Shown: positions 7,075 through 25,808 of the stretch, piece after piece | How positions within the stretch are numbered: position 1 is the first letter of the stretch | Layout of the letters: each line of letters opens with the position of its first letter | Translations under genes and position numbers: made by a program | Source of the DNA: Fusobacterium sp. DD2 | Lineage (GTDB): Bacteria > Fusobacteriota > Fusobacteriia > Fusobacteriales > Fusobacteriaceae | Direction: 5' to 3' | NCBI RefSeq assembly: GCF_018205345.1 | Contig: NZ_JADRHM010000023.1 | Coordinates: 1-32,552 of the forward strand | Length of the DNA stretch: 32,552 nucleotides | Notes under the pieces: generated by a model | Database searches by the model: none | The model's input: only the letters and a program-made list of their open reading frames with translations | What the model was told of the DNA's origin: nothing

Positions 7075-7151
<77 letters not shown>

Positions 7152-7156
7152 GACAT

Positions 7157-7232
7157 GCGTCATTAGCTCAGTTGGTAGAGCACCTGACTCTTAATCAGGT
7201 GGCCACAGGTTCGAATCCTGTATGACGCACCA
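7157..7232 (+). tRNA. tRNA-Lys (anticodon CTT)
   Basis: 76 nt, acceptor 7157-7163 pairs with 7222-7228, discriminator A, CCA encoded. The anticodon stem CCTGA/TCAGG encloses CTCTTAA, giving CTT (reads AAG). In an AT-rich genome that prefers AAA, a tRNA-Lys with TTT is expected elsewhere as well. Confidence 0.96.
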
Positions 7233-7248
7233 TCGAGAGGTTTTAAAT

Positions 7249-7323
7249 GCCCCGTTCGTTCAGTGGTAAGGACATCAGATTTTCACTCTGGAAACAGGGG
7301 TTCGATTCCCCTACGGGGTACCA
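7249..7323 (+). tRNA. tRNA-Glu (anticodon TTC)
   Basis: 75 nt. The acceptor stem 7249-7255 pairs with 7313-7319 with one G-U pair at the end; discriminator A, CCA encoded. The anticodon loop gives TTC. The T-arm stem AGGGG/CCCCT is perfect. Confidence 0.95.
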
Positions 7324-7326
7324 CTT

Positions 7327-7402
7327 GGTCGCATAGCTCAGTTGGGAGAGCACCTGCCTTACAAGCAGGGGGTCATAGGTTCAAGTCCTATTGCGACCAC
7401 CA
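7327..7402 (+). tRNA. tRNA-Val (anticodon TAC)
   Basis: 76 nt. The acceptor GGTCGCA pairs with TGCGACC; discriminator A, CCA encoded. The anticodon stem CCTGC/GCAGG encloses CTTACAA, giving TAC. It is separated from tRNA-Glu by only 3 nt. Confidence 0.97.
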
Positions 7403-7407
7403 TATAT

Positions 7408-7485
7408 GGGGGTGTAGCTCAGTTTGGTTAGAGCGCATGCCTGTCACGCATGAGGTCGCGAGTTCGATCCTCGTCACTCCCGCCA
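7408..7485 (+). tRNA. tRNA-Asp (anticodon GTC)
   Basis: 78 nt because of a longer D-loop. Acceptor 7408-7414 pairs with its 3' partner with one G-U; discriminator G, CCA encoded. The anticodon stem CATGC/GCATG encloses CTGTCAC, giving GTC. Confidence 0.96.
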
Positions 7486-7494
7486 TATAATGAT

Positions 7495-7570
<76 letters not shown>

Positions 7571-7589
7571 TAACAAAAATAGAATAGAT

Positions 7590-7673
7590 GCGAGGATGGC
7601 GGAATTGGCAGACGCGCTAGACTTAGGATCTAGTGTCCCAGACGTGAGAGTTCAAGTCTCTCTCTTCGCACCA
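7590..7673 (+). tRNA. tRNA-Leu (anticodon TAG)
   Basis: 84 nt with the long variable arm of class II tRNAs. The acceptor GCGAGGA pairs with TCTTCGC with one G-U; discriminator A, CCA encoded. The anticodon stem CTAGA/TCTAG encloses CTTAGGA, giving TAG. It is the last tRNA before the array terminator. Confidence 0.96.
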
Positions 7674-22435: not shown

Positions 22436-22464
22436 TTGACTATTTGAGGTCTTAGTGGTATCAT
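22436..22464 (+). promoter_or_regulatory. Promoter of the acyl-CoA dehydrogenase-rubredoxin / flavodiiron operon
   Basis: -35 TTGACT (22436-22441), 17-nt spacer, -10 TATCAT (22459-22464), with TG at 22456-22457 (extended -10). The predicted RNA start near 22471 leaves a leader of about 75 nt containing a hairpin. Confidence 0.75.
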
Positions 22465-22485: not shown

Positions 22486-22513
22486 TATATCCACATTGAA
22501 ATTTGTGGATATA
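22486..22513 (+). promoter_or_regulatory. Perfect 10-bp hairpin in the 5' leader of the fusion gene
   Basis: TATATCCACA (22486-22495) pairs fully with TGTGGATATA (22504-22513) around an 8-nt loop. No T-tract follows, and the ribosome site (AGAGGGGG) is about 20 nt further on. It could be an RNA stabiliser, an RNA-protein site, or a DNA palindrome bound by a regulator just downstream of the promoter. Confidence 0.6.
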
Positions 22514-22547: not shown

Positions 22548-24470
22548 ATGCTTTTTAAAACAACAGATGTACATGAAGAATTACGTAAAAAAGTCAGAGA
22601 GTTTGCGGAAACAGAGGTAAAACCTATAGCGTTCATGTTAGACAAAAACAATGAATTCCCTACAGAAGCTATTAAAAAATTTGGGGAAATGGGAATGATG
22701 GGACTTCCATATCCAAAAGAATATGGAGGAGCAGGAATGGACATATTAAGTTATGCTATTGCTGTTGAGGAACTATCAAGAGTTGATGGAGGAACTGGAG
22801 TTATTCTATCTGCTCACGTATCACTTGGAACTTACCCTATATTTGCTTATGGAACAGAAGAGCAAAAACAAAAATATTTAGTACCTTTAGCTAAAGGAGA
22901 AAAACTTGGAGCTTTTGGACTTACAGAACCAAATGCAGGAAGTGACGCTGGAGGAACTGAAACTACAGCTGAACTACAAGGAGATTACTACATATTAAAT
23001 GGTGGAAAGATATTTATAACAAATGCTGATAAAGCTGATACATATGTTGTATTTGCTTCAACAGCACCAGAATTAGGAACAAAAGGAATCAGTGCATTTA
23101 TAGTTGAAAAAGGATGGGAAGGATTTACATTTGGAGATCACTATGACAAATTAGGAATTCGTTCATCATCAACTGCTGAACTTATTTTTAACAATGTTAA
23201 AGTTCCTAAAGAAAACCTACTTGGAAAAGAGGGAGAAGGATTTAAAATAGCTATGTCTACTCTTGATGGAGGAAGAATAGGAATTGCTTCTCAAGCTCTA
23301 GGAATTGCGCAAGGTGCTTATGAACATGCACTTGAATATGCAAAAGAAAGAGTTCAATTTGGAAAGCCAATAGCATATCAACAAGCTATTTCATTTAAAT
23401 TAGCTGATATGGCTACTAAAATAAGAGCAGCAAGATTTATGGTTTACAGTGCTGCAGAATTGAAAGAAGAACACGAACCATATGGAATGGAATCTGCAAT
23501 GGCAAAACAATATGCTTCAGATATCTGTTTGGAAGTAGTAAATGATGCACTTCAAATATTCGGAGGAAACGGATACTTGAAAGGAATGGAAGTAGAACGT
23601 TCTTATAGAGATGCTAAGATTTGTACTATTTATGAAGGAACAAATGAAATTCAAAGAGTAGTTATTGCAGCTCATATTATTGGGAAGATGCCCAGGGAAA
23701 GTTCTAATAAAAGAAAGTCAACAAAAGGTCACGCTACTGGACTTCGTAAGAACATTATTTTTAAAGATGGAACAATGGAGGAAAAAGTAGCAGCATTAGT
23801 AGAAGATCTTAAGAAAGATGGATATGATTTTACAGTTGGTATTCCTCTAGATACTCCTATTGCACTTGCTGATCGTGTAGTCAGTGCTGGTAAAGGAATT
23901 GGAGAAAAAGCTAACATGAAATTAATAGAAGATCTTGCTGTACAAGCAGGAGCTGCTATTGGATCATCTAGACCAGTTGCAGAAACTTTAAGATATGTAC
24001 CTCTAAATCGTTATGTTGGAATGTCAGGACAAAAATTCAATGGTAACTTATATATAGCATGTGGTATTTCTGGAGCAGGACAACACTTGAAAGGAATAAA
24101 AGATGCTACAACAATAGTTGCTATTAACAACAACCCTAATGCTCCAATATTTAAGAATGCTGACTATGGAATTGTAGGAGACTTAAAAGAAGTATTGCCT
24201 ATACTAACTAAAGCACTTGATAATGGAGAAGCTAAACAACCTGCACCACCTATGAAGAAAATGAAGAGAGTTGTACCAAAACCTTCAAGACCTTCAGCTT
24301 GGAAACGTTACGTATGTAGCGGATGTGGATATGAATATGATCCAGAATTTGGAGATGAAGAAAATGATATTCCAGAAGGAACACTATTTGAAAAACTTCC
24401 TGATGAATGGATTTGTCCAGATTGTGGAGAAGAAAAGAGCGCATTTATAGAAGTTGTTGAAGAAGATTAA
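22548..24470 (+). CDS. Acyl-CoA dehydrogenase / ETF-alpha FAD domain / rubredoxin fusion
   Basis: A three-part redox enzyme of 640 aa. (1) Residues 1-381: complete short-chain acyl-CoA dehydrogenase, with [22 protein letters not shown] and the catalytic base Glu363 in YEGTNE. (2) About 400-565: the C-terminal FAD domain of ETF-alpha, with [12 protein letters not shown] (Arg475 equals the flavin-site arginine), [15 protein letters not shown] and [14 protein letters not shown]. (3) About 584-640: rubredoxin with Fe ligands C590, C593, C623 and C626. A Lys-rich linker (383-402) joins parts 1 and 2. ETF-alpha domain I and EtfB are missing, so NADH-driven bifurcation is not expected. The gene is followed by a flavodiiron protein, the usual rubredoxin oxidase. 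Acyl-CoA chain length is not readable; butyryl-CoA-like substrates are inferred. Confidence 0.95.
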
Positions 24471-24516
24471 TTATAACGATTGATTATTGATGGAATAGAT
24501 TGAAGGAGGACATTAT

Positions 24517-25722
24517 ATGCATAATGTAAGAAAAGTAACAGATGATTTATACTGGATAGGTGGAGACGACCATCGTTTACATCTATTTGAAAATATACAC
24601 CCAATCCCAAGAGGAGTTTCTTATAACTCATACCTATTGTTAGATAAGAAAACTGTTTTATTTGATACTGTTGACTGGGCAATAGGACGTCAATTTATTG
24701 AAAACCTTGAGTATCTATTAGATGGAAAAAAACTTGACTATATGGTAATTAACCACATGGAACCTGACCATGCTGCAATGATAGAAGAAGTATTACTTCG
24801 TTATCCAGATGTAAGAATTATAAGTACAGAAAAAGCATTCTATTTTATGAACCAATTTGGATTCCATATTCATCCTGAAAAATGTGAAACTGTTATAGAA
24901 GGAGATACAAAATCATTTGGTAAACATAAAGTAGTATTTGTTGGAGCACCTATGGTTCACTGGCCAGAAGCTATGGTAACATTTGATACTACAAATGGAG
25001 TACTATTCAGTGCTGACGCATTTGGAAGCTTTGGTTCACTAGATGGAAGACTGTTCAATGATGAAGTTAATTTTGATAGAGATTGGCTTGATGATGCAAG
25101 AAGATATTACACTAATATAGTTGGAAAATATGGACCACATGTTCAATTCCTACTAAAGAAAGCACCAGTTGCAGATATTAAATATATTTGTCCATTACAT
25201 GGTCCAGTTTGGAGAAATGACTTTGGATATCTATTAGACAAATATGATAAATGGAGCAGATATATTCCTGAGGAAAAAGGAGTAATGATAGTATATGCAT
25301 CAATGTATGGAAATACAGAAAACGCTGCATCAGTTTTAGCTAAAAAATTAGTTGAAAAAGGAATGACTAATGTACATATGTATGACGTATCAAAATTTGA
25401 TGTATCTTATTTAATCTCTGACACTTTTAAATACAGTCATATAGTACTTGCATCAGTTACATATAACTTAGGAATTTATCCAAAGATGCACAATTACTTG
25501 ATGGATATGAAAGCTTTAAATCTTCAAAAGAGAACTATTGCTATTCTTGAAAATGGTTCTTGGGCATGTAAATCTGGAGATTTAATGTCTCAATGCATGG
25601 ATGAATTAAAAGATATGAATGTGTTAAATGAAAGAGTTACATTAACTTCATCACTAAATGAGAGTGGAGAAGTTGAAATGGACAATGTTGTTGACGCAAT
25701 TCTTGAATCAATGAAAAAATAA
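24517..25722 (+). CDS. fprA: FprA-type flavodiiron protein (O2/NO reductase)
   Basis: Soluble class A flavodiiron protein that reduces O2 to water, or NO to N2O, with electrons from rubredoxin. The 401 aa have a beta-lactamase-like diiron domain (1-250) with all ligands: H80, E82, D84, H85 (HMEPDH), H148, D167 and H228. A flavodoxin domain for FMN (about 255-400) opens with VMIVYASMYGNTENAA. It starts 46 nt after the fusion gene, with AAGGAGGA and no separate promoter, so the rubredoxin domain upstream is its natural electron donor. Terminator downstream at 25754. O2 versus NO preference cannot be told from sequence. Confidence 0.96.
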   Translation: MHNVRKVTDDLYWIGGDDHRLHLFENIHPIPRGVSYNSYLLLDKKTVLFDTVDWAIGRQFIENLEYLLDGKKLDYMVINHMEPDHAAMIEEVLLRYPDVRIISTEKAFYFMNQFGFHIHPEKCETVIEGDTKSFGKHKVVFVGAPMVHWPEAMVTFDTTNGVLFSADAFGSFGSLDGRLFNDEVNFDRDWLDDARRYYTNIVGKYGPHVQFLLKKAPVADIKYICPLHGPVWRNDFGYLLDKYDKWSRYIPEEKGVMIVYASMYGNTENAASVLAKKLVEKGMTNVHMYDVSKFDVSYLISDTFKYSHIVLASVTYNLGIYPKMHNYLMDMKALNLQKRTIAILENGSWACKSGDLMSQCMDELKDMNVLNERVTLTSSLNESGEVEMDNVVDAILESMKK

Positions 25723-25753: not shown

Positions 25754-25808
25754 GAGGGCAGAAAGTTTGCTTTATTAGAGGCAGATTTTCTGTCCTCTAT
25801 TTTTTTTG
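25754..25808 (+). terminator. Terminator after fprA
   Basis: An 11-bp stem (25754-25764 with 25787-25797, one G-U) with a 22-nt loop is followed by TAT and a run of T. It closes the fusion/fprA operon. The T-tract overlaps the -35 box of the next promoter. Confidence 0.75.

What the first reader, a model, noticed from the sequence alone, without database searches (positions are those of the whole stretch)
22548..25722. One-polypeptide electron chain from acyl-CoA to rubredoxin, paired with a flavodiiron oxidase
Seen: a gene joining acyl-CoA dehydrogenase, the ETF-alpha FAD domain and rubredoxin, with all catalytic and metal residues intact, 46 nt before a complete FprA flavodiiron protein, with one promoter before and one terminator after. 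Known: ETF-alpha's FAD domain takes electrons from acyl-CoA dehydrogenases; flavodiiron proteins take them from rubredoxin and reduce O2 or NO. Inference: the operon is a complete, soluble acyl-CoA:O2 (or NO) reductase system. As EtfB and ETF-alpha domain I are absent, it should not bifurcate with NADH and could burn acyl-CoA electrons to remove O2, in an anaerobe that makes butyrate. I recall related fusions being annotated in databases but know of no established role for this pair.
Basis: partly seen in the sequence, partly recalled or inferred. Interest (0 to 1): 0.78.

Follow-up and report, generated by a model that had tools for sequence, protein, structure and literature searches.

The report
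Known butyryl-CoA:oxygen oxidoreductase operon (BOOR)
These two genes encode an enzyme pair, already described from a related bacterium in 2024, that lets oxygen-sensitive butyrate-making bacteria turn oxygen into water using electrons from butyryl-CoA.

Summary
The gene at 22548-24470 (640 aa) joins an acyl-CoA dehydrogenase, the ETF-alpha FAD domain and a rubredoxin. It lies 46 nt before a complete class-A flavodiiron protein at 24517-25722 (401 aa). Every catalytic, FAD-site and metal residue tested is present. The pair has the anatomy of butyryl-CoA oxygen oxidoreductase (BOOR; BCR plus FDP; FN1423-FN1424 of Fusobacterium nucleatum), described by Bystrom & Wolthers (Biochemistry 2024). I did not read that paper; I know it through passages of three later papers. 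[quoted passage not shown] The fusion is followed by the flavodiiron gene on the same strand in 101 of 101 loci examined. Of 61 family genomes, all 22 with the fusion hold a flavodiiron gene at least 69% identical, and none of the 39 without it has one above 59%. Novelty: already known; interest low. Minor leads: a BCR-free BOOR-like flavodiiron gene beside two thiol-redox genes in four relatives, and a decayed second operon in one.

The parts
22436..22464 (+). candidate promoter TTGACT-17-TATCAT
   Evidence: consensus scan, 10 of 12 matches with TG before the -10, site count in the region not above shuffles; TTGACT-17-TATAAT upstream of the gene in L093, L094 and L095 (by eye)
22548..24470 (+). 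BCR: butyryl-CoA dehydrogenase / ETF-alpha FAD domain / rubredoxin fusion, 640 aa
   Evidence: ORF, Pfam, NCBIfam, residues
22563..23687 (+). acyl-CoA dehydrogenase part, about residues 6-380; catalytic base Glu363 in YEGT (role recalled)
   Evidence: Pfam; 5ol2 chain C over residues 10-377, E 3.9e-143; E363 in 102 of 102 rows
23859..24218 (+). ETF-alpha C-terminal FAD domain, about residues 438-557; SSRP, GISGA.QH, IN motifs
   Evidence: PF00766 at 438-518, E 1.3e-24; NCBIfam EtfA models to residue 557; motif columns
24306..24446 (+). rubredoxin domain, residues 587-633; Cys590, 593, 623, 626
   Evidence: PF00301 E 1.3e-18; four Cys in 102 of 102 rows
24517..25722 (+). FDP: class-A flavodiiron protein, 401 aa; His80, Glu82, Asp84, His85, His148, Asp167, His228 (ligand roles recalled)
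   Evidence: Pfam; PDB relatives 6etb, 1ycf, 1e5d and others; columns
25754..25797 (+). intrinsic terminator-like hairpin, 20 pairs, followed by a T run

Best explanation
The operon encodes butyryl-CoA oxygen oxidoreductase (BOOR). The dehydrogenase FAD of BCR takes two electrons from butyryl-CoA. They pass to the FAD of the fused ETF-alpha domain, then one at a time through the fused rubredoxin iron to the FMN of the flavodiiron protein, and on to its diiron site, where O2 is reduced to water. The crotonyl-CoA made can be reduced again by a separate Bcd-Etf, so O2 removal can also feed Rnf-dependent energy conservation. Shown here by sequence: domains, residues, gene pairing, and separate dehydrogenase, ETF and rnfC genes elsewhere in the genome. 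Reported in print for F. nucleatum: the activity, the complex, the lack of NO reduction, and the link to Bcd-Etf and Rnf. Inferred here: that this pair does the same, and the order of the electron steps.
For: Same domain order and neighbour as described for F. nucleatum FN1423-FN1424. The Pfam set equals the BCR and FDP architectures listed in PMC13404960. The host is placed in the Fusobacteriaceae by inference: best named relative Fusobacterium sp. at 88%, and genomes of its own genus and family carry BCR proteins identical to those of named Fusobacterium records. BCR is followed on the same strand by the FDP in 101 of 101 loci. Co-occurrence is 22 of 22 against 0 of 39 family genomes. Catalytic Glu, tested ETF FAD-site residues, rubredoxin Cys and FDP ligands conserved. 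A separate dehydrogenase gene and two ETF genes on contig C110 and rnfC on C16.
Against: No direct comparison with FN1423 or FN1424 was made: none of the 80 named loci kept in the one scan is titled F. nucleatum. The primary paper is not held. Activity, flavin content and complex cannot be tested by sequence. Whether the ETF genes of this genome bifurcate was not tested. Two of 12 genus genomes (G003, G004) lack the fusion, and 39 of 61 in the family do, so it is dispensable.
Confidence: 0.95

Rival explanations
1. The pair works as an acyl-CoA:NO reductase (nitrosative defence) rather than an O2 reductase.
For: The FDP's best-scoring solved and curated relatives are called anaerobic nitric oxide reductase flavorubredoxins, below the curated cut-offs.
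Against: The review reports no NO reductase activity for the F. nucleatum complex. Family names do not decide the substrate.
Confidence: 0.03
2. BCR acts mainly in another direction, for example as a crotonyl-CoA reductase fed by reduced rubredoxin, or as a donor to other rubredoxin-linked partners such as rubrerythrin, the FDP being only one of them.
For: The best NCBIfam model is acryloyl-CoA reductase AcrC, 483.7 bits, below its cut-off of 640.
Against: Pairing with the close FDP in every locus and genome with a full fusion that was examined; O2 coupling reported for the F. nucleatum pair.
Confidence: 0.03
3. The substrate is an acyl-CoA other than butyryl-CoA (for example isovaleryl- or glutaryl-CoA).
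For: Substrate cannot be read from these searches; several dehydrogenase families match.
Against: The best solved relatives include 5ol2 (recalled as a Bcd-Etf complex), 1buc butyryl-CoA dehydrogenase and short-chain enzymes; butyryl-CoA is reported for F. nucleatum.
Confidence: 0.06

Closest known systems
Butyryl-CoA oxygen oxidoreductase (BOOR), BCR + FDP, FN1423-FN1424 of Fusobacterium nucleatum (Bystrom & Wolthers 2024, not read; known from passages of PMC12288474, PMC12630350 and PMC13404960, which cite it)
   Same: Three-domain fusion in the same order, gene pair with a flavodiiron protein of two domains, same bacterial family (inferred)
   Different: Nothing found in the anatomy; identity to FN1423 or FN1424 was not measured here
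BOOR gene pair of gut Firmicutes (Roseburia inulinivorans, Eisenbergiella tayi, Faecalibacterium prausnitzii; PMC13404960, passages)
   Same: Same two genes; the E. tayi locus L043 is 79% (BCR) and 69% (FDP) identical to the window
   Different: There an Rrf2-type regulator gene is reported nearby. None of the ten proteins scanned around the window operon is Rrf2; of six Rrf2 matches in this genome the two over the family's cut-off lie on contigs C50 and C52, and none on this contig
Bcd-Etf complexes (PDB 5ol2; its bifurcating nature is recalled)
   Same: Dehydrogenase domain homologous to 5ol2 chain C; ETF-alpha FAD domain homologous to EtfA families
   Different: Lacks EtfB and ETF-alpha domain I; carries a rubredoxin instead
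Class-A flavodiiron proteins (PDB 1ycf, 1e5d rubredoxin:oxygen oxidoreductase)
   Same: Domains and diiron ligands
   Different: The presumed donor is the acyl-CoA-fed fusion; for most studied FDPs a reduced pyridine nucleotide is the primary source

Membership tests
BOOR (BCR + FDP) | single protein: acyl-CoA dehydrogenase, ETF-alpha C-terminus, rubredoxin, in that order | tested here: met
BOOR (BCR + FDP) | flavodiiron gene directly downstream on the same strand | tested here: met
   46 nt gap; same order in 101 of 101 related loci
BOOR (BCR + FDP) | catalytic Glu, ETF FAD-site residues, four rubredoxin Cys, FDP iron ligands | tested here: met
   residue roles recalled from family knowledge
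BOOR (BCR + FDP) | Fusobacterium or anaerobic butyrogenic host with Bcd-Etf and Rnf | tested here: met
   by homology only, rnfC alone of the Rnf genes; bifurcation and the butyrate-releasing enzyme were not tested
BOOR (BCR + FDP) | sequence orthology to FN1423 and FN1424 themselves | not tested
   no record titled F. nucleatum fetched; Fusobacterium gastrosuis (L079) is 79% (BCR) and 76% (FDP) identical
BOOR (BCR + FDP) | complex of the two proteins; butyryl-CoA:O2 activity to water; no NO reduction | not testable with these tools
   reported for F. nucleatum
Electron-bifurcating Bcd-EtfAB | EtfB and ETF-alpha domain I (PF01012) present with the dehydrogenase | tested here: not met
   no PF01012 in the fusion or on this contig
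Class-A flavodiiron protein | metallo-beta-lactamase diiron domain followed by a flavodoxin domain, without further domains | tested here: met

The most novel reading that the evidence does not exclude
The BOOR-type flavodiiron lineage may have split. In four genomes of one related genus (G029, G031, G032, G035) a flavodiiron protein 58-63% identical to this one stands apart from any BCR. In all four loci a DsbD/CcdA-like membrane protein and a TlpA/thioredoxin-like protein follow it on the same strand. It may have taken a thiol-redox or other donor in place of butyryl-CoA. In addition BCR might also feed other rubredoxin-linked acceptors.
Probability: 0.12. Interest if true: 0.35.

Novelty: already known. 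Interest (0 to 1): 0.12.

Why it matters
It confirms that the published BOOR gene pair is present in this genome and shows how strictly its two genes travel together. It raises no new kind of system. Its biological weight is the already published point that obligate anaerobes can remove O2 with a weak reductant and still conserve energy (PMC12288474, passages).

Tried and rejected
A perfect inverted repeat in the leader (arms of 10, spacer of 8, 22486-22513) was considered as a regulator site. A script reported the best exact inverted repeat in the last 160 nt upstream of the gene in 85 other loci (family loci L126-L137 not included); in none was it this one. Imperfect repeats were not tested. 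In the own genome the pattern has one exact place; with up to 3 mismatches there are 74 places per strand against 43 for the reversed control, an excess that I did not follow up. It was dropped as a shared operator of BCR genes.

Transfer between phyla was considered because the window is closer to some Bacillota (83%, L011) than to F. gastrosuis (79%, L079). On the tree the Fusobacteriaceae rows need 4 changes of label, but the deep forks are weak and one origin is not ruled out (quick method), so nothing is claimed.

Rrf2 control as proposed for gut Clostridia (PMC13404960): none of the ten scanned neighbours is Rrf2 and none of six genome matches is on this contig.

A search of the held library up to 2023 for flavodiiron, butyryl-CoA, rubredoxin and acyl-CoA dehydrogenase together gave 0 papers, in line with first publication in 2024.

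Structure prediction was not run; it would not have decided the question.

Full report
What is there. The fusion gene spans 22548-24470 (640 aa, ATG) and the flavodiiron gene 24517-25722 (401 aa, ATG), 46 nt apart. Pfam finds the three acyl-CoA dehydrogenase domains, the ETF-alpha FAD domain and a rubredoxin in the first, and the lactamase-like diiron domain plus flavodoxin in the second. NCBIfam gives the same picture; no model shown reaches its curated cut-off (25 of 31 shown for the fusion, 12 of 12 for the FDP). The dehydrogenase part is closest to 5ol2 and other butyryl/short-chain enzymes in the PDB; the second protein is closest to flavorubredoxins and FprA-type proteins. A terminator-like hairpin follows at 25754-25797 and a promoter-like site precedes at 22436-22464. 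Such sites are not more numerous in the region than in shuffles, but three genus relatives share the promoter form (by eye).

Pairing. One genome scan matched 579 stretches that encode some relative of the query; the best 80 were kept (L009-L088), and all 80 were examined. In all 101 the flavodiiron gene lies downstream on the same strand; the median distance between the tblastn match ends is 43 nt and the largest 424 nt. The 424 nt belongs to L031, whose flavodiiron match begins only at residue 128; that row was left out of the flavodiiron alignment. The window's own copy (L092) and the broken second copy of G008 (L104) were not counted; L104 also has a flavodiiron piece downstream. The sample is not independent: four BCR proteins repeat others exactly.

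Residues. Of 102 BCR rows (window included; 98 distinct), the catalytic Glu363, the four rubredoxin Cys and the ETF residues S474, R475, P476, R488, G491, G494, G506, I507, S508, G509, Q512, H513 and N527 are in 102 of 102; S473 is in 92 and I526 in 100. Of 101 FDP rows, four of them short (97, 212, 246 and 246 residues), His80, Glu82, Asp84 and His85 are in 101, His148 and Asp167 in 100 (one gap) and His228 in 99 (two gaps). In the flavodoxin domain G265 is in 97 (four gaps), S262 is S in 83 and T in 14, N266 is in 93 and T267 in 93 (all). The roles of these residues are recalled family knowledge.

Distribution. In the genus 10 of 12 genomes have the full fusion; G003 and G004 lack it. In the family 22 of 61 have it at E at most 1e-150. 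All 22 also have a flavodiiron protein 69-100% identical to the window's, G048's being a 245-residue partial match. None of the 39 others has one above 59% (matches at E at most 1e-60). Some of the 61 genomes are incomplete.

Genome context. The own genome also holds a separate acyl-CoA dehydrogenase gene (57% identical to the fusion's first part) and two ETF genes side by side on contig C110, further ETF pairs on C36, C3 and C30, rnfC on C16, and a second flavodiiron gene 42% identical on C61. This resembles the setting described for F. nucleatum, which has BOOR, Bcd-Etf, Rnf and a second, monocistronic flavodiiron gene. Around the operon lie ordinary genes: relA/spoT-like, tgt, then yceG-like, a radical SAM protein, tilS-like and ftsH-like (domains, gene names recalled). 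The tree puts the window in a six-row group of Fusobacteriaceae (98% SH-aLRT).

Comparison with the literature. The review PMC12288474 (passages read) states that F. nucleatum FN1423 is bicistronic with a gene for butyryl-CoA dehydrogenase, the C-terminus of EtfA and rubredoxin (BCR). [quoted passage not shown] PMC12630350 (passages) gives the gene numbers FN1423-FN1424. PMC13404960 (passages) lists the same Pfam architectures in gut Clostridia near an Rrf2 gene. All three cite Bystrom & Wolthers 2024, which is not held and which I did not read. The term 'butyryl-CoA oxygen oxidoreductase' is in 3 papers of the held library.

A side lead. In four genomes of a related genus a flavodiiron protein 58-63% identical to the window's has no BCR beside it. 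In all four loci two genes follow on the same strand. In the two loci scanned with Pfam (L139, L141) they are a DsbD transmembrane protein and a thioredoxin-like AhpC/TSA protein; in the other two (L140, L142) the translations look the same by eye. G029 and G031 have no BCR at all at E at most 1e-150; G032 and G035 have one on another contig.

Verdict. What remains unproven is that this pair has the same activity; I see no reason in the sequence to doubt it.

Noticed in passing
L139 2975-4174 (G029), L140 2909-4108 (G031), L141 3435-4634 (G032), L142 1459-2658 (G035): A BOOR-like flavodiiron protein (58-63% identical to the window's) without a BCR beside it; a DsbD/CcdA-like membrane protein and a TlpA/thioredoxin-like protein follow on the same strand in all four loci (Pfam on two of the four).
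   Followed up: partly
G008:C1:3203733-3206890 (start held as L104): A second copy of the operon that looks decayed: dehydrogenase part 88% identical, then ETF, rubredoxin and FDP pieces with stops and breaks, besides a full-length copy elsewhere in the same genome.
   Followed up: no
window 22486-22513: Perfect 10-bp inverted repeat with an 8-nt spacer in the leader between promoter-like site and start codon; not the best repeat upstream of the gene in any of 85 other loci. The loose pattern has 74 places per strand in the genome against 43 for the reversed control.
   Followed up: partly
G002:C3:1464643-1465764: In this genus relative a second, distant flavodiiron gene (39% identical) lies right after the BOOR operon on the opposite strand.
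   Followed up: no
window 7076-7673: Cluster of seven tRNA genes (Gly, Lys, Glu, Val, Asp, Thr, Leu).
   Followed up: no
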